Assembly: GCA_002400895.1 (NCBI GenBank)
Contig: NVRO01000162.1
Coordinates: forward strand, 1 to 7,017
Source of the DNA: Planctomycetota bacterium
GTDB taxonomy: Bacteria > Planctomycetota > UBA1135
Length of the DNA: 7,017 nucleotides
Direction: 5' to 3'
The position numbers were made by a program, and so were the translations under genes. Numbering within the stretch: the stretch's first letter is position 1; the number at the start of each line of letters is the position of its first letter. The notes beneath the pieces were generated by a model. The model saw nothing but the letters and a program-made list of their open reading frames with translations. It was not told where the DNA came from and did no database searches. Of the stretch, positions 1 through 7,017 are shown piece by piece.

Positions 1-1
1 C

Positions 2-970
2 GGAGACCGCCGTATTCACATTTCGATGGTTGATTACGAAGAAGACGGGGATCTGTCCCGGGTTAAGTTCAACCGTCCGGACGCGATGAATGCCCTCAAT
101 GTACAAGTAGGCATTCAATTGATGACCGCGATTGAGCGCGCCCGGGTAAGTGGGAAAAAAGGCCTGGTGCTTCAAGGCACCGGCAAGGCATTCGTCGCCG
201 GCGCCGACATCAAGTTTTTTGTCGACAATCTAGAGCGCGGCTCCTTCGAGCCAATTTACCATTTTGCCCGGGTCGGCCATGACTGTTTTCGAACCCTTAG
301 CGGCAAGCGGCAGCCGAGCATTGGCCGAGTGCAGGGAATGTGCTTGGGTGGTGGCGCCGAACTTGCGGTTTCCTGTGATTTTATTATTGTCTCCCCAAAA
401 GCCATGTTTGGATTTCCCGAAACCGGAATTGGAATCATTCCCGGACTGGGAGGAACCCAGCGCGTGCCGCGCCGAATCGGATTGCCTTTGGCAAAGTGGA
501 TGATTTACACCGGTCAGATGGTTGACGCCAAAACAGCGGTTGACATTGGGCTTGCCGACAAGATGGTCCCCTTTTCGGAACTGGACTCGGCCTGCGACAA
601 GTGCGCCGAGATGGGGCGGCAGGGAGAACGAATCGCTCCCGTCACCGCGCCAAATGAAAAGTGGTTGGCGATATGGGACTTTTTCACCGATTACACCGTG
701 GAGCAGATTCTGTCCGGTCAAGCAGATACCAAAGATGACCCGGCGCTGGAAGGAGCAGTCAAAAAGATGGGCTTCAAGTCCGCCCATGCGCTGTTCGCGG
801 CCGAGGCAATGCTCAATGATTCCAAAGTTCTCGGAATGGAAGCCGGGCTGGACAAGGAGCTCGACCTCCTCCGAGACGTCTTCCTGCATGCGGACGCGCT
901 TGAGGGAATGAAGGCCTTGCTTGAAGGTCGCAGACCAGAATTCAAGCCGCTGGCGGCGCTTTCTGCCTGA
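2..970 (+). CDS. Enoyl-CoA hydratase/isomerase (crotonase fold), probably the C-terminal part of a fused 3-hydroxyacyl-CoA dehydrogenase/enoyl-CoA hydratase; 5' end cut by the window
   Basis: Predicted to hydrate trans-2-enoyl-CoA to 3-hydroxyacyl-CoA in fatty-acid beta-oxidation, in the cytoplasm. Numbered from the Met codon at 26 (314 residues), it shows NRPDAMNAL at 17-25, the CoA/oxyanion motif AGAD at 58-61, GGGAEL at 108-113 and FGFPETGIG...PGLGGTQR at 129-146. The two catalytic acids of the crotonase family, E112 and E132, are both present. The C-terminal helices (about 250-305) end in the usual GRRPEFK. The frame is open from base 2, and the eight codons before ATG 26 (GDRRIHIS) prolong the first beta strand. 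No ribosome binding site precedes ATG 26. The wording around residues 70-90 and 125-165 resembles the hydratase half of fused dehydrogenase/hydratase proteins. I therefore favour a truncated larger gene; a stand-alone hydratase starting at 26 is the alternative. The gap to the next gene is 30 bases. Confidence 0.88.
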   Translation, partial: GDRRIHISMVDYEEDGDLSRVKFNRPDAMNALNVQVGIQLMTAIERARVSGKKGLVLQGTGKAFVAGADIKFFVDNLERGSFEPIYHFARVGHDCFRTLSGKRQPSIGRVQGMCLGGGAELAVSCDFIIVSPKAMFGFPETGIGIIPGLGGTQRVPRRIGLPLAKWMIYTGQMVDAKTAVDIGLADKMVPFSELDSACDKCAEMGRQGERIAPVTAPNEKWLAIWDFFTDYTVEQILSGQADTKDDPALEGAVKKMGFKSAHALFAAEAMLNDSKVLGMEAGLDKELDLLRDVFLHADALEGMKALLEGRRPEFKPLAALSA

Positions 971-1000: not shown

Positions 1001-2227
1001 ATGATTTTTCTCTCAGTATTCCTTCTCTGCCCCCAAACGACTCTGTTCTACGAAGACTTCGGTTCCGGAGTAGTCCCGCCCGCCAACTGGATTGAACTTA
1101 ACAACAGCAACTCTGCCGGTTGGGAATCGGGAACTCTAATTGGGAATGCCGCTTTCCACGACGATTATGCCGGGTTCAATGACAATCGCCTGGTATCGCC
1201 ACAGATTGACACCAGTGCGGTAACCCAACTAGGGCTTCACTTTGAACAAACGGTTGTGTTCGCAAGCTGGCGCGATCACCACTACATTGACGTTTCCCTG
1301 GACAATGGAGTAACTTTTATCAACGTCGCCGATGATGCCTCCCCTGATGGAACATCTTCCTTGAGTGTTGATATTAGTTCGTTTGCTGGCATCAACGGAG
1401 TAAACGTAGCCTTCCACTACACCGGTGATTACGCCTCGGAATGGACCATTGATGAGGTCATCGTCAGCGACTCGCCGACTCCCCCGCCGCCGGCAATTCT
1501 TTCCACCTCAATCAATCCGGCCAATGGGCATACTTATCACTTGCTCGAGTCCACAACCTGGACTCGGGCGGAGGCGGCGGCCTTGTCGCTCGGCGGAAAC
1601 CTTGCAACTGTCCGCAGTCAAAGTGAAAACGACTGGATTTTTCAACAGTTTGGTTACTTCGCTGGCCAGGAGCGCGATCTTTGGATTGGCCTTAACGATG
1701 TCGCCTCGGAAGGCAACTTCGTTTGGACCAGCGGAGAGCCTTTTACTTATGGCAATTGGGCGGTTGGCCAGCCGGACAACAACGGCGGGGTCGAAAGTTT
1801 CGTTCATATTTACGGAGCCAATAGTCCGTATGGCCCAGGATTATGGAATGACATGTTTGATGCTGCCAGTGCCGGGTGGAGTCCCGGATATTACGGAGTT
1901 GTTGAAATTGGAGGTGGCGTACCCTTCATGACGATTACAAATTTGGTCGCTGGTCAAATCGCCAACGTTTCCATTACCAACTGTACGCCGAACAAACCGG
2001 TTTATTTTGTGTGGTCGGCGGCTGGCGGTGGCCCCATCAACACTGCATTTGGGGTCGGCTATGTTTCGCCGCCATTCCATCTCATCCCCTTGATGTCTGA
2101 TGCTGCTGGAAATGCCGTGCTCAACCAATCGGTTCCTGCTCATGTTTCCGGGCTCCAGCTCTGGTTTCATGGTGCCGATCCTGGCTCATTAAGTATGCTC
2201 AACCCACTGGCGATGGTTGTCGGATAG
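1001..2227 (+). CDS. Secreted choice-of-anchor J / C-type lectin-like domain protein
   Basis: Probable exported carbohydrate- or protein-binding protein of 408 residues; no enzyme motif seen. Residues 1-14 form a short hydrophobic leader (IFLSVFLL) with no positive charge, which is weak for a signal peptide. ATG 1001 is nonetheless the first start after the in-frame stop at 986. Residues 17-157 match a choice-of-anchor J (MAM-like jelly-roll) domain: YEDF at 17-20, WES at 41-43, LVSPQID at 64-70, and the closing WTIDEV at 148-153. After a proline linker (159-164), residues 175-304 form a C-type lectin-like domain with A...L.GNLATV at 192-204, DLWIGLND at 226-233, QPD at 257-259 and WND at 282-284. 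Only two cysteines exist (C10, C328), so the usual lectin disulfides are missing. Residues 308-408 form a beta-rich module (YFVWSAAGGGP, then SPPF and SDAAGNA) resembling C-terminal modules of planctomycete secreted proteins. The ligand is unknown. Confidence 0.85.
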   Translation: MIFLSVFLLCPQTTLFYEDFGSGVVPPANWIELNNSNSAGWESGTLIGNAAFHDDYAGFNDNRLVSPQIDTSAVTQLGLHFEQTVVFASWRDHHYIDVSLDNGVTFINVADDASPDGTSSLSVDISSFAGINGVNVAFHYTGDYASEWTIDEVIVSDSPTPPPPAILSTSINPANGHTYHLLESTTWTRAEAAALSLGGNLATVRSQSENDWIFQQFGYFAGQERDLWIGLNDVASEGNFVWTSGEPFTYGNWAVGQPDNNGGVESFVHIYGANSPYGPGLWNDMFDAASAGWSPGYYGVVEIGGGVPFMTITNLVAGQIANVSITNCTPNKPVYFVWSAAGGGPINTAFGVGYVSPPFHLIPLMSDAAGNAVLNQSVPAHVSGLQLWFHGADPGSLSMLNPLAMVVG

Positions 2228-2290: not shown

Positions 2291-3388
2291 GTGCGTGCCG
2301 GATTCTCTACGCCGTTACTGTTGGCCACCTTGACAACGATGTCTTGCGGGTCCAATCTTGATTCTGTGGCAATGAACCCGCTACGAGGAGTAACCCTTGC
2401 CGGACCTGAGTTCGGAACTCAAAAACCTGGCTTTTGCGCAGGTGACTCTGGTGTCTTTGACCGCGACTACACCTGGAATTCGCGCCAAACCGTTCGGTGG
2501 TTTGCCAGCCGCGGGTTTGGTGTATTTCGAATTCCGTTTCGCTGGGAAAGAATGCAGCCGGAGCTGGGAGGCGCCCTGGACGTTGCCGAGATTAGACGCC
2601 TTAAAAAGACTGTCGACTGGATTGAGAGCTGTGGGGGCGAAGCGATTTTGGATCTCCACAACTTTGGACACTACACCTTTTCCACTCCGAATGGCCCCCT
2701 TGAAGTTGCCCTGGAGCAAGAAGTTGGCGGCGAAAAACCTCTCACTGCAGCCCATTTGGCCGATTTTTGGACCCGTATATCTGTTGTGTTTTCCAACACC
2801 GCGGGGGTCAAGGCCTATGGGTTGATGAATGAACCTCACGATTTGCCGGATGGAGCCTGGAAATTGTGTTCGCAGGCAGCGGTAAGTGCGATTCGTAAGC
2901 GTGGCGACAAGACCGCCGTCCTGGTTGCCGGGGACGATTGGTCCAACTCGGAACTTTGGGAACAGGCAAATGGACCAAATAGCTGGATTGATGACCCCGC
3001 CAACAACTTCATTTATGAGGCCCACTGCTACTTTGATTACGACGCAAGCGGAGAATATAAAACTGGTTATGACCGGGAGCTATGGCTTGACCCAGATCTC
3101 ACAAAGCGTCCACAGACCCGGCTGCAACCATTTATCAATTGGTGCAGGCGCAACCACGCAAGGGGCTTAATGGGAGAAATCGGGGTTCCTGGACATGAAA
3201 AGCGCTGGGAACCTCTCTTGCGGGACGCAATTGCCCTTTTAGACATGGCAGAAATTCCTAGTTGCTATTGGGCGGCGGGAGAATGGTGGGGCGACTACCC
3301 GCTCTCGCTTCAACCACGCAATGATTTCACGGAGCAATCATCACAGATGAGCTGGTTTCTTGGGGGAGAAGGCGGAAAAAGACCCTAA
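2291..3388 (+). CDS. Glycoside hydrolase family 5 beta-glycanase (cellulase-like), probable lipoprotein
   Basis: Predicted retaining endo-beta-1,4-glucanase or related beta-glycanase acting outside the cytoplasmic membrane; 365 residues, normal for a single GH5 TIM barrel. The barrel starts near 'LRGVTLAG' (31-38). GH5 landmarks follow in order: R80 in FRIPFRWE, H123 in LDLHNFG, the acid/base E181 in LMNEPHD (178-184), H245 and Y247 in EAHCYFD, the nucleophile E296 in MGEIGVPG (294-301), and W327 in CYWAAGEWWG. The start is GTG 2291, the first start after an in-frame stop at 2279. AAGG touches the GTG directly, so the ribosome binding site is poor. Residues 1-18 look like a lipoprotein leader, with TMSC (16-19) as a loose lipobox and C19 as the lipidated residue. 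The next gene, 195 bases downstream, encodes a cellulose synthase-like protein, suggesting a role in trimming or releasing the nascent glucan like BcsZ, which is normally GH8. Mannan or xyloglucan as substrate cannot be excluded. Confidence 0.9.
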   Translation: MRAGFSTPLLLATLTTMSCGSNLDSVAMNPLRGVTLAGPEFGTQKPGFCAGDSGVFDRDYTWNSRQTVRWFASRGFGVFRIPFRWERMQPELGGALDVAEIRRLKKTVDWIESCGGEAILDLHNFGHYTFSTPNGPLEVALEQEVGGEKPLTAAHLADFWTRISVVFSNTAGVKAYGLMNEPHDLPDGAWKLCSQAAVSAIRKRGDKTAVLVAGDDWSNSELWEQANGPNSWIDDPANNFIYEAHCYFDYDASGEYKTGYDRELWLDPDLTKRPQTRLQPFINWCRRNHARGLMGEIGVPGHEKRWEPLLRDAIALLDMAEIPSCYWAAGEWWGDYPLSLQPRNDFTEQSSQMSWFLGGEGGKRP

Positions 3389-3583: not shown

Positions 3584-6500
3584 ATGTTGACCCGCGGAAT
3601 GCGCCAAGCCCTGATGGTCCTCGCCCTCGCGGTGTCCATCCTGTATCTATGGTATAGGGGTCAATACACTCTGAACCTGGAGACAAACTACGCTATTTTT
3701 GCCTCGTTGCTGCTGTATTCGGCCGAAGCATGGGGTTTTCTCTCGATGTGCCTTTACTTCTTCCAGGTATGGGACCTCTCAGAGCCTGCCGAACAACCCA
3801 TTCTCGAGGGTCGCACCGTAGACGTTTTTGTCCCTACCTATAACGAGGACGTTCTGCTGCTTCGCACCACCCTGCAGGCTTGCCTTGATCTTGACTATCC
3901 CCACCGGACCTATGTACTCGACGATGGCCGACGCGATGAGGTCCGAGAACTGGCTGACGAGCTCGGAGTCCGCTACATCACTCGTGACTCCAACCAACAT
4001 GCCAAGGCGGGCAACCTAAACCATGCCCTTGAACAAACCGACGGTGAGTTCATCATCATTTTTGACGCCGACCACGTCCCACAGAAGCGCTTTATCAACC
4101 GCCTAATCGGCTACTTCCGGGATGAAAAATGCGGATTCGTGCAAACCCCGCACGCTTTCTACAACTTCGACAACTTCCAGGGTTCTTGCAATTTCAACAA
4201 GAAAAAGTACTGGGACGATGGGCTGCTATTCTACAAAGTCATCCAGCGTGGGCTAAACCGCTGGAATGCTGTTATTTTCGCCGGCTCAGCCGCCATTTTC
4301 CGTCGCAAGGCCTTGGAGGAGGTTGGCTACATTGCAGTGGAAACGATTACCGAAGACATGCACACCGGTATCCGCATGACTGCTCTGGGGTGGAAGACGG
4401 TATACGTCTCCGAACCATTAATCTCCGGACAGGCCGCTCCCGACGTTACCACTTTCCACTCCCAGCGGCTGCGCTGGGGCGAAGGAAACTTGTCGATTCT
4501 GTTCATTGACAACCCCCTGTTAATGCGCGGACTCACAATCCCCCAGCGGCTGTCTTACTTTTCGTCAATAATTAGCTGGAGTGCGGGGTTCTCGCGCATC
4601 GCGTTGTACCTGACCCCTCCATTGCTATTACTGACCGGGGTTGCTCCACTCAAAGAATTCACCTGGACCTTGGGTATCATCCTCGCTTCCTATCTGTTAA
4701 TTACTCAGATGTCGCTGCGCCTGGTTTCCGGAAAAAACTGGTCCTTGTTCGATATCGAATTGTTTTCGATGGCAAGTTTCTGGACTCAAATTCGCTCGAT
4801 GTTCCGCGCGGTTTTCAGGCGTAAGAAATCCAAGTTTGTTGTCACCAGCAAGCGTGGTCGCCAAAGCGATTCGCTGGCACCATACATCGCTCCGCAATTG
4901 GTATTAATCAGCATCAGCTTCATTGCACTTGTATGGGGCGCACTGCGCCTGGTCTTCAACACTTCAAGCGATTGGTATGGACCTGGCATTGGCGGCCCCT
5001 TGTGCATGTTCTACATATATCTTGCCTGGGTGGTTGTACGCCGCGCCATGGGTGCTGCCGACCAGCGTTTCGCGTACCGCCACAATGCGGTTCTTCCAGT
5101 CTCCTTCAGCTTTGAAGACACCGGGGGAGAAGCGCTTCGAGGCATGGGGGTGACCGCTGACTTGTCGGAAGCCGGAATAAACCTGGTCAGTTACCGCCCG
5201 CTTGAGGTCGGTATGTCGGGCCGATTCATGCTTCGCGCGGGAGAACAGGCTTTTGAATGCCGCGGCAAGATTTGTCACGCCGAAGACGTTAACATTCCAA
5301 AAGAGGCAATAGAAAATCCTGAAATCCCGGTTACCTACCGTTACGGTGTTCACTTCTCGGACTTGTCACCCGAACAAACCGACGAACTTCACCGCATTGC
5401 GCTGCACTTTGCTGTTCCCCAACTATACAGCCACTTTGACAGCCGCGTTTCCCGTACCAAGCGCTTGGCTTTCCGTATTCTTAATGTCAGCGCGTGGAAA
5501 AAGCGCGAGGGACGGAAGCCTTATCGCATGCCTCTCGTGCTCGGCGGAGAACCAGGCGGGGCCTCGACCTTTGCGGTCAGCGAGGACTTGAGCCGTTCGG
5601 CCGCCCGCCTGTTAACATCAACATCCTTTGAAGTTGGCCGTGAGACTAGGTTCCTGATCTCCACTCCGCTTGGTGAAATTGAAGGCAAGGCGAGGATTGT
5701 CAGAAGTGACAAACGAACTTTTGGCCCATTGGAAATGTGGGAAAACGTTATTGCGTTTACCAAGTTCGACGGACAAGGGCGTGGAACTTTGCACTCGCTA
5801 TTGCAGCCGCTCGACGAAGAAAGCGTTCAATATGCCCTGTGCGCCCGCAGCAAAGACGCGCCGCAACCTTTGTTCCAGCCATTGGCAATCGGACTGCTTT
5901 CGGCCGCAGTCCTGGTCCCCAGCTCAATGGCGGTTTTCCGTTCGATAAATAGCGACGACTTGTTCTTGCAAGAGGCTGTTTCTGTCGGATTGCAGGACGA
6001 GATGGATTACCAAAGATTTGAGTCGATTTACCGCAAGGCACTGAACAGCCTGCCTTCAAATTCCCAGTTGTCGATGCTCGGCGAGCTGATGATGCGCCAG
6101 GATCGTAGCGCGGAAGCCGAAGAGCTGACTCGTTTGATGTTATCCTCGGAGCCCCACAATCTGGATTTGAGAAAGGCCCTGGCCGACACCCTGGCCAACC
6201 TCAAACAACACGAAGAGGCGGAGCAGGAGTATCTGGCGATTCTTGAGACCTTGCGCACAACTACCGACATTGTCGGAATGTCGGCAGAAACAGTGCTGCT
6301 TGCTTCCGCCCGTAATCTGGTACATTCTGGAAATACCGAGCTTGCGCTTGAGCGTTTCGGCGAACTGATTGAAACGGCAAGAGCTGTGGATCACTCCGTG
6401 ATTTCTGAATACGCCGGTGTCCTGGTTAGCACCAAACAATATGGAAAAGCCGAAGAATTGCTTGCCAACAGCCACGGCGACCCGGACTCCTTGTTCACGC

Positions 6501-7017
6501 TTGCCGGAATCTACTCGGCTCAAGAACGATTTGATGAAACCGAAACGGTCTGCCGAAGAATCTTGTCGATTCGTCCGGAACACATTGGTGGCCGTCGCTT
6601 GCTTGGCGATGTCCTTGCCTGGCGCAACGACTTCTCTTCCGCAGCATTGATTTTCGCGGAACTCATGGAAGACGAGCCCGACAACGTCGACTTTGCCCGC
6701 CGGTATGCCGAACTAACTTTATGGGGCGGCAGCCACGAGAGCTCTCTGGAAATCTATCGTCAACTACTAATCGAAGATATTAGCCGTACCAGTCTGTGGC
6801 AGGGATTCCTCGATGCCGCCGCAGGCGCCCAAACCAAGGCCAGTCGCGACTTGGAGTTGTGTGCGGAAATTGGCAAGAGACTGAATCTTACCGACAGTGA
6901 CGATACCGAATTGCTCTCCAGATTGGCTAGCGTTCTGTTGAACGCCGGGCAGCCCAAGCAGGCAATTACCCTGCTTGAAAACGTAATCCGACAAAGCCCC
7001 CGTGATCGCCGTGCGCG
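3584..7017 (+). CDS. bcsA: BcsA-like cellulose synthase (GT2) with tandem PilZ domains, fused to a C-terminal TPR region; 3' end cut by the window
   Basis: Predicted inner-membrane synthase polymerising UDP-glucose into beta-1,4-glucan and extruding it. One unbroken frame of at least 1144 codons runs off the window. Numbered from ATG 3584 (the first in-frame start after the stop at 3485; ATG 3599 is the alternative; neither has a clear ribosome binding site): two membrane helices (about 8-24, 36-61); a GT2 domain with PTYNED (84-89), DDG (113-115), HAKAGNLN, DADH (161-164), TED (256-258) and QRLRW (294-298); about four helices between 329 and 488; and the gating-loop motif FxVTxK at 418-423. 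PilZ domain 1 has RxxxR (495-499) and DLSEAG (526-531), the full c-di-GMP signature. PilZ domain 2 has RxxxR (644-648) but DLSRSA (668-673). A further helix (766-785) leads to TPR-like helical repeats from about 800 onward, placed in the periplasm if the topology holds. BcsA proteins usually end soon after one PilZ domain. No BcsB gene is visible; it could lie downstream. Confidence 0.9.
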   Translation, partial: MLTRGMRQALMVLALAVSILYLWYRGQYTLNLETNYAIFASLLLYSAEAWGFLSMCLYFFQVWDLSEPAEQPILEGRTVDVFVPTYNEDVLLLRTTLQACLDLDYPHRTYVLDDGRRDEVRELADELGVRYITRDSNQHAKAGNLNHALEQTDGEFIIIFDADHVPQKRFINRLIGYFRDEKCGFVQTPHAFYNFDNFQGSCNFNKKKYWDDGLLFYKVIQRGLNRWNAVIFAGSAAIFRRKALEEVGYIAVETITEDMHTGIRMTALGWKTVYVSEPLISGQAAPDVTTFHSQRLRWGEGNLSILFIDNPLLMRGLTIPQRLSYFSSIISWSAGFSRIALYLTPPLLLLTGVAPLKEFTWTLGIILASYLLITQMSLRLVSGKNWSLFDIELFSMASFWTQIRSMFRAVFRRKKSKFVVTSKRGRQSDSLAPYIAPQLVLISISFIALVWGALRLVFNTSSDWYGPGIGGPLCMFYIYLAWVVVRRAMGAADQRFAYRHNAVLPVSFSFEDTGGEALRGMGVTADLSEAGINLVSYRPLEVGMSGRFMLRAGEQAFECRGKICHAEDVNIPKEAIENPEIPVTYRYGVHFSDLSPEQTDELHRIALHFAVPQLYSHFDSRVSRTKRLAFRILNVSAWKKREGRKPYRMPLVLGGEPGGASTFAVSEDLSRSAARLLTSTSFEVGRETRFLISTPLGEIEGKARIVRSDKRTFGPLEMWENVIAFTKFDGQGRGTLHSLLQPLDEESVQYALCARSKDAPQPLFQPLAIGLLSAAVLVPSSMAVFRSINSDDLFLQEAVSVGLQDEMDYQRFESIYRKALNSLPSNSQLSMLGELMMRQDRSAEAEELTRLMLSSEPHNLDLRKALADTLANLKQHEEAEQEYLAILETLRTTTDIVGMSAETVLLASARNLVHSGNTELALERFGELIETARAVDHSVISEYAGVLVSTKQYGKAEELLANSHGDPDSLFTLAGIYSAQERFDETETVCRRILSIRPEHIGGRRLLGDVLAWRNDFSSAALIFAELMEDEPDNVDFARRYAELTLWGGSHESSLEIYRQLLIEDISRTSLWQGFLDAAAGAQTKASRDLELCAEIGKRLNLTDSDDTELLSRLASVLLNAGQPKQAITLLENVIRQSPRDRRA

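What the first reader, a model, noticed from the sequence alone, without database searches (positions are those of the whole stretch)
3584..7017. Cellulose synthase fused through an extra membrane helix to a TPR scaffold
A single open frame joins a complete GT2 synthase, two PilZ domains, a hydrophobic helix (residues 766-785, bases 5879-5938) and at least 340 residues of TPR-like helical repeats, for example EAEELTRLMLSSEPHN and the LAW...A..IF.ELMEDEPDN pattern near 6620-6690. In classical systems the catalytic BcsA and the periplasmic TPR protein (BcsC N-terminal half) are separate genes. Here the odd number of helices would put the TPR part in the periplasm, physically coupling synthesis at the inner membrane to export across the envelope. 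The gene is cut by the window, so the C-terminus could even include an outer-membrane barrel or another domain. I do not recall this as a standard architecture.
Basis: partly seen in the sequence, partly recalled or inferred. Interest (0 to 1): 0.8.

Follow-up and report, generated by a model that had tools for sequence, protein, structure and literature searches.

The report
Cellulose synthase with built-in periplasmic arm
In one group of Planctomycetota bacteria, the enzyme that appears to spin a cellulose-like glucan through the inner membrane carries, in the same protein chain, an extra membrane helix and a long repeat arm that probably reaches into the periplasm towards a separate outer-membrane export pore, while the usual helper protein BcsB was not found.

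Summary
The fused frame is real and conserved. The window gene (3584-7015, cut) encodes BcsA-like GT2 + two PilZ + membrane helix + TPR array. A database copy differing by 2 residues is 1182 aa long: 38 residues are missing from the window, and there is no barrel in the chain. In one class of Planctomycetota, 31 of 154 genomes show the PilZ-helix-TPR junction. The 34 fused rows of the tree form one clade (100/100). Catalytic and gating-loop motifs are kept; the helix is present in 37 of 37 rows. BcsB was found in 0 of 30 genomes. A separate TPR/16-strand barrel protein is in 27 of 29 loci, a GH5 cellulase in 26 of 29; the barrel's five best VIA matches are PelB, BcsC and PgaA. Nine of ten unfused two-PilZ planctomycete loci read have a helix-TPR protein as a separate neighbour. 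Best reading: a BcsB-less synthase that brings its own seventh helix and a periplasmic TPR arm that hands glucan to a BcsC/PgaA-like porin. Topology, contact and polymer are inferred, not shown. New variant of a known kind.

The parts
3584..7015 (+). Fused gene, BcsA-like GT2 - PilZ - PilZ - membrane helix - TPR; cut by window end, 38 codons plus stop missing if it ends as P0002 does
3596..3751 (+). First two membrane helices (residues 5-23 and 38-56); the structural alignment begins at model residue 1 and residue 58 of R. sphaeroides BcsA (4p00), so BcsA TM1-2 appear to be lacking
3818..4483 (+). GT2 catalytic domain (residues 79-300) with DDG 113-115, DAD 161-163, TED 256-258, QRLRW 294-298
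4598..5038 (+). Four further membrane helices (339-357, 363-381, 439-457, 467-485) with gating loop FVVTSK 418-423 (4835-4852)
5051..5398 (+). First PilZ domain with RxxxR (495-499) and DLSEAG (526-531), the c-di-GMP motifs
5504..5803 (+). Second PilZ-like domain, motifs degenerate across homologues (boundaries approximate, from AlphaFold2 strands)
5873..5947 (+). Seventh membrane helix (residues 764-788); D[DE]xxL follows at 791-795 in 36 of 37 rows
5951..7015 (+). TPR helical array (residues 790-1144 in the window; continues to about 1168 of 1182 in P0002)
2291..3388 (+). GH5 cellulase-family gene, the likely BcsZ counterpart; 195 bases upstream of the fusion, same strand

Best explanation
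A c-di-GMP-controlled, cellulose-type glucan synthase in which BcsA carries its own replacement for BcsB. The six BcsA channel helices (equivalent to TM3-8) pass the glucan across the inner membrane; the first PilZ domain gates the enzyme by c-di-GMP; a seventh helix, which BcsB supplies in classical systems, crosses back to the periplasm; the TPR array attached to it forms a periplasmic arm that docks on, or aligns, the separately encoded TPR/16-strand outer-membrane porin; the GH5 enzyme trims misdirected glucan. Shown here: frame, domains, conserved motifs, helix conservation, gene neighbourhood, BcsB not found, fused rows in one clade. Inferred: topology, docking to the porin, the replacement of BcsB, c-di-GMP control, the role of GH5 and the identity of the polymer.
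Against: No experiment. Topology rests on hydropathy, charge bias and structural homology; K/R is 2 before and 1 after the helix in the window protein, equal in 6 and reversed in 2 of 37 rows. The strict DxSxxG motif is kept in only 10 of 37 rows (the window protein is one). Contact with the porin was not tested; no complex was modelled. TPR profile matches are partly generic: the porin TPR matches the fusion TPR at E 4.4e-24 and the helix+TPR stretch, through TPR only, at E 2.3e-6. Foldseek itself ranks generic TPR proteins first for the porin, BcsC at ranks 23 and 29. The porin gene is not seen in the window (upstream lies a lectin-domain gene; downstream is cut). BcsB-less cellulose systems with other helpers exist (cyanobacteria, PMC12430437; Clostridium, PMC7710045), so an unrecognised helper here is possible. 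The NCBIfam cut-off is not reached (411.5 of 699.1 bits), so the product could be another polymer.
Confidence: 0.6

Rival explanations
1. The TPR arm is periplasmic but its job is not bridging to the porin: it recruits the cellulase or other periplasmic proteins, or drives synthase multimerisation.
For: TPR arrays are generic protein-binding scaffolds (recalled); GH5 is found in 26 of 29 loci; arm length varies widely, from a separate protein of 135-161 aa to the 1661-aa fusion P0006, which fits poorly with one fixed trans-periplasmic distance.
Against: The porin is linked as tightly (27 of 29) and itself has a long TPR solenoid; BcsC TPR contacts the inner-membrane complex in E. coli (PMC11379886 passages).
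Confidence: 0.25
2. Helix 764-788 does not cross the membrane; like a C-terminal helix of BcsA it lies on the inner face and the TPR part is a cytosolic scaffold, for example for c-di-GMP enzymes.
For: The structural alignment to E. coli BcsA runs through this region (9fnn_A, model 1..783 to chain ..848); the tail of an E. coli BcsA copy also has a hydrophobic stretch (KD 1.46).
Against: KD mean 2.14, no charged residue in 34 of 37 rows, mean hydrophobic moment 0.08 against 0.17 for the E. coli tail; in unfused relatives the matching segment is near the N-terminus of a TPR protein behind a basic stretch, the form of a signal-anchor with a periplasmic domain.
Confidence: 0.08
3. Gene-calling or assembly artefact: two genes joined by a missing stop or frameshift.
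For: The window is from an unnamed record and the named records that carry the fusion are metagenome-assembled; some matches are flagged with one or two stops (G001, G013, G028, G030, G031, G109).
Against: 31 of 154 genomes carry the junction; 29 loci with a stop-free stretch over it were used for the neighbourhood counts; helix and D[DE]xxL motif conserved; one clade; 22 database clusters of 1152-1183 aa with GT2, PilZ and TPR domains (two of them are the query's own and P0005).
Confidence: 0.01
4. The synthase makes a polymer other than cellulose (another beta-glucan or a mixed polymer) with the same machine logic, comparable to the NfrA/NfrB system of E. coli. This is compatible with the best explanation except for the polymer.
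For: NCBIfam equivalog score under cut-off; NfrB/NfrA is a c-di-GMP-regulated GT2 plus TPR-barrel pair for another glycan (PMC8669472 passages).
Against: QR[LM]RW, FxVTxK and TED motifs and a linked cellulase-family enzyme, GH5 in fused loci and GH8 in four unfused loci scanned.
Confidence: 0.25

Closest known systems
BcsA-BcsB-BcsC cellulose secretion systems (E. coli, R. sphaeroides)
   Same: GT2 core, gating loop, PilZ with c-di-GMP motifs, TPR/16-strand porin, linked endoglucanase
   Different: BcsA fused to helix and TPR arm; two PilZ domains; BcsA TM1-2 apparently lacking; BcsB not found (0 of 30 genomes); GH5 found beside it (GH8 was not searched for in the fused loci)
BcsAB and BcsZC gene fusions in Zymomonas / Alphaproteobacteria (PMC7112194, passages)
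   Same: Fusion of cellulose secretion subunits into one chain
   Different: Those fuse BcsA with BcsB or BcsZ with BcsC; here no PF03170 match in the chain and the fused partner is a helix-TPR arm
BcsB-less cellulose systems: cyanobacterial XcsA/XcsB/XcsC (PMC12430437, passages) and clostridial CcsA/CcsB/CcsZ (PMC7710045, passages)
   Same: Cellulose synthase without BcsB; another membrane-anchored protein is proposed in its place; endoglucanase linked
   Different: There the substitute is a separate HlyD-like or CBM-type protein; here it would be a fused helix-TPR arm, with a TPR-barrel porin
NfrB/NfrA (NGR exopolysaccharide, E. coli; PMC8669472, passages)
   Same: Inner-membrane GT2 with a c-di-GMP domain plus TPR-barrel porin
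   Different: NfrB uses an MshEN-like domain; the passages mention no TPR in NfrB; different glycan
Plant CesA and the seven-helix type of cyanobacterial synthase
   Same: Seven helices, two of them near the N-terminus (cyanobacterial type: PMC12430437 passage); in 7 of the 8 plant CesA/CslF6 rows shown the alignment runs on to model residue 784-789, for poplar ending at 954-958 where TM7 is 932-958 (PMC10592267 passage)
   Different: Here PilZ domains lie between helices 6 and 7 and a TPR array follows; only alignment end points were seen, not coordinates
Unfused planctomycete and verrucomicrobial loci
   Same: BcsA with PilZ, helix-TPR protein; TPR-barrel porin in several; GH8 in four scanned
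   Different: Helix-TPR encoded separately (135-161 aa in Planctomycetota, 559-563 aa in Verrucomicrobia)

Membership tests
BcsA, UDP-forming cellulose synthase | DDG, DxD, TED, Q(Q/R)xRW and FxVTxK motifs | tested here: met
   every row that covers them
BcsA, UDP-forming cellulose synthase | PilZ domain with RxxxR and DxSxxG | tested here: met
   met in the window protein; across 37 rows RxxxR 37, DxSxxG 10, D-x-[SNT]-x-x-G 37
BcsA, UDP-forming cellulose synthase | Score over NCBIfam cut-off TIGR03030 / NF008558 | tested here: not met
   411.5 of 699.1 and 350.9 of 992 bits
BcsA, UDP-forming cellulose synthase | BcsB (PF03170) partner | tested here: not met
   0 of 30 related genomes (28 fused, 2 unfused); genome completeness not told; window's own genome not held; positive controls
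BcsA, UDP-forming cellulose synthase | Makes cellulose from UDP-glucose | not testable with these tools
   needs biochemistry
BcsC | C-terminal OM barrel in the fused protein | tested here: not met
   P0002 ends after TPR
BcsC / PgaA / PelB porins (the separate partner) | TPR solenoid plus 16-strand barrel | tested here: met
   predicted model
BcsC (the separate partner) | NCBIfam NF008520 cut-off and Pfam BCSC_C | tested here: not met
   on 5 porins: no BCSC_C row at E 0.001 (the L002 list shows 25 of 29 families); NF008520 at most 55.6 of 858 bits
BcsAB fusion | BcsB domain in the same chain | tested here: not met
   no PF03170 at E 0.01
NfrB | MshEN-like c-di-GMP domain | tested here: not met
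   no such Pfam row at E 0.01 among the 23 families; PilZ instead

The most novel reading that the evidence does not exclude
BcsB has been dispensed with: the covalently attached seventh helix completes the glucan channel as the BcsB anchor (or plant CesA TM7) does, and its TPR arm takes over the tethering of the outer-membrane porin, so that synthesis, c-di-GMP sensing and periplasmic hand-over sit in one polypeptide and a two-protein trans-envelope machine suffices.
Probability: 0.4. Interest if true: 0.75.

Novelty: new variant of a known kind. Interest (0 to 1): 0.6.

Why it matters
BcsB is required for BcsA activity in the systems cited, yet how much of that need is its membrane helix and how much its periplasmic domains is, as far as I know, open. 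A natural synthase without recognisable BcsB, with its own seventh helix and a TPR arm, would make that question testable and would give a smaller trans-envelope glucan machine. The split and fused series (small separate anchor, large separate anchor, fused arm) also suggests an evolutionary path.

Tried and rejected
Whole-genome look-up for the window: none held. Barrel at the C-terminus of the same protein: rejected. Viral carriers: 2 weak GT2 hits only. Plasmids: 694 records match, none covers 80% of the query; of the 8 rows listed 6 are annotated bcsA, 1 hypothetical, 1 unannotated. The porin profile against PDB sequences gave TPR, repeat and designed proteins and no exopolysaccharide porin among the 60 shown of 163; Foldseek ranked generic TPR proteins first, with BcsC at ranks 23 and 29; the VIA second look put the exopolysaccharide porins first. 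Verrucomicrobial anchor segment against the fusion segment: not convincing (Prob 8, E 0.004); against the small anchors, Prob 0.5. RNA families in the window: no match at gathering scores. A tblastn script failed on a Python path, so its zero counts are void; repeated.

Papers: seven searches of the held PMC library. I saw listings, and found passages of PMC11379886, PMC8669472, PMC7112194, PMC10592267, PMC12077881, PMC10237404, PMC12430437, PMC4594306 and PMC7710045; no paper was read whole. No listing or passage that I saw describes a BcsA-TPR fusion. The library lacks most subscription journals. JGI's own names for two database homologues join the cellulose-synthase-like glycosyltransferase name with 'tetratric...' (P0015) and 'Flp pilus...' (P0034), so the combined domains are already recorded by annotation.

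Rows dropped: of 38 loci, the neighbourhood counts use 29 (dropped: L118, duplicate of L141; L143, N-terminus only; L144-L147, other synthases; L095, L117, L007, too little flank); one search adds the window. By called frames GH5 was in 23 of 30 and the porin in 27 of 30; by tblastn 26 and 27 of 29. Searches use 37 rows, of which P0001 and P0002 are the same gene and L002/L003 near-copies. The tree leaves out P0001, L118, L141 and L142; treekit warned of long branches and of odd letter make-up in several unfused rows, and the unfused group is not one clade (3 changes; L171 falls elsewhere and a Methylomirabilota row falls inside). Of the 16 unfused genomes, 13 loci were read and G166, G342 and G430 were not. 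Only 4 candidates a genome were scored, and 2, so counts are lower bounds.

Mended: 9 of 9 became 9 of 10 unfused loci, since no helix-TPR gene was recognised in L171; the label anammox, which no call supports, was removed; the strict DxSxxG count (10 of 37) and the BcsB-less systems known from other phyla were added.
Full report
What is there. The window's last gene (3584-7015, + strand) is one uninterrupted frame, 1144 codons to the window end. Pfam finds GT2 (79-300), PilZ in two stretches and TPR families over about 808-1144. A database copy, P0002, differs at 2 of 1144 residues and is 1182 aa long: 38 residues more, TPR helices to 1168 and a short tail, no barrel. Upstream on the same strand lie a GH5 cellulase-family gene (2291-3388), a lectin-C / choice-of-anchor-J protein (1001-2227) and an enoyl-CoA-hydratase-family gene.

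The extra helix. Seven segments of P0002 pass a KD mean of 1.4: six in the synthase, and 767-785. The seventh is present in 37 of 37 rows (KD 1.67-2.41), with no charged residue in 34 and one in 3, and D[DE]xxL follows in 36 of 37. Six helices put PilZ in the cytosol; the seventh would put the TPR part in the periplasm. This is an inference. K/R is more frequent before than after the helix in 29 of 37 rows, equal in 6, reversed in 2, and only 2 against 1 in the window protein. As a control, the tail of an E. coli BcsA copy also holds a hydrophobic stretch, weaker and with charge (KD 1.46). In 7 of the 8 plant CesA/CslF6 rows the alignment continues to model residue 784-789; for poplar it ends at 954-958, and TM7 there is 932-958 (PMC10592267 passage). 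That hints that the helix may pack like CesA TM7; only end points were seen.

Distribution. In the class of genome G002 (record: Planctomycetota bacterium ALOHA_ZT_45), 36 of 154 genomes match at E 1e-60: 27 over nearly the whole length, and 31 across the PilZ-helix-TPR junction. In a sample of 392 genomes of the phylum, 23 match: 7 fused, all seen before in that class, and 16 whose matches stop before the TPR part. In the class of G008 (Verrucomicrobia), 3 of 240, all unfused. The protein database gave 5 fused clusters from the window protein and 22 from L005, P0005 being in both. One fused row, L007, is in a genome labelled Bacteroidales; it groups with P0006 inside the fused clade and may be a mis-binned contig. 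The 34 fused rows of the tree form one clade with 100/100 support; the unfused rows lie outside it but are not one clade.

No BcsB. PF03170 was found in 0 of 30 genomes (28 with the fused gene, 2 unfused), while it rings in E. coli and B. subtilis among 14 controls. Completeness of the genomes was not told. Other Planctomycetota loci, L175-L177, do have BcsB (E 2e-104 or better) beside BcsA, so the family is detectable in the phylum.

Where the arm came from. I read ten unfused planctomycete loci of the two-PilZ type. In nine (L009, L163-L170) a small gene of 135-161 aa lies beside the synthase(s): basic stretch, membrane helix, 'ELLLQ'-like motif, TPR; in L171 I recognised none (a 208-aa neighbour has cytochrome c matches). 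The small protein's profile matches the fusion from mid-helix through the juxtamembrane segment into TPR (E 1.8e-12), and helix/juxtamembrane alone at E 6.5e-6, Prob 85. A control, the porin TPR against the same fusion stretch, gives E 2.3e-6 through TPR only, so the TPR share is partly generic. Its TPR pair also matches the last TPR pair of the fusion (E 6.3e-11, 36% identity). In Verrucomicrobia (L008/L174, L173) the neighbour is a 559-563 aa helix-TPR protein; its anchor segment alone is not convincingly similar (Prob 8), and its TPR match (E 5.5e-29) is not far above the porin-TPR control (E 4.4e-24). So fused and split systems appear to share their parts, and the tree fits a single joining of synthase and anchor.

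Mechanism. In studied systems BcsB adds one helix to the TM3-8 channel and is needed for activity (PMC10237404 passage), and in E. coli the terminal BcsB tethers BcsC's first TPR (PMC11379886 passages). Here BcsB is not found, and exactly one helix and one periplasmic-type arm are attached to the synthase. The simplest reading is that the attached part takes over both roles, with the porin receiving the glucan and GH5 clearing faulty product. The contact, the topology and the polymer are untested.

Known relatives. Published fusions in this pathway seen in passages are BcsAB and BcsZC (PMC7112194). BcsB-less cellulose synthases with separate substitutes are described in cyanobacteria (PMC12430437) and Clostridium (PMC7710045), so lack of BcsB alone is not new. 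NfrB/NfrA is a comparable GT2-plus-porin machine with another c-di-GMP domain (PMC8669472). Seven searches of the held library showed no paper on a BcsA-TPR fusion in the listings and passages I saw; the library is incomplete.

Noticed in passing
L009:5999-10390, L163, L164, L165, L167, L170: Six unfused planctomycete loci carry two neighbouring BcsA-like synthases (one of the L165 pair is broken into two frames) beside one small helix-TPR protein.
   Followed up: partly
P0006 (1661 aa): A fused homologue with a much longer, apparently duplicated TPR arm.
   Followed up: no
window 1001-2227: Protein with choice-of-anchor J and C-type lectin domains just upstream of the cellulase gene; it is in none of the neighbour clusters of 4 or more loci that one search printed.
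   Followed up: partly
L007:4801-7584: Fused synthase, cut by the contig end, in a genome labelled Bacteroidales; two neighbours are M16 peptidases; may be mis-binned.
   Followed up: partly
L004, L005, L121-L125: Several loci carry two GH5 genes near the fusion/porin pair.
   Followed up: no
L120:1759-6069 and 6 other loci: A large downstream ORF (median 1341 aa, 7 loci); in L120 it has di-haem cytochrome c peroxidase and beta-helix matches.
   Followed up: partly
L175, L176, L177: Other Planctomycetota carry BcsA with BcsB (Pfam, all three) and, in L175, a GH8: a classical-looking system in the same phylum.
   Followed up: partly
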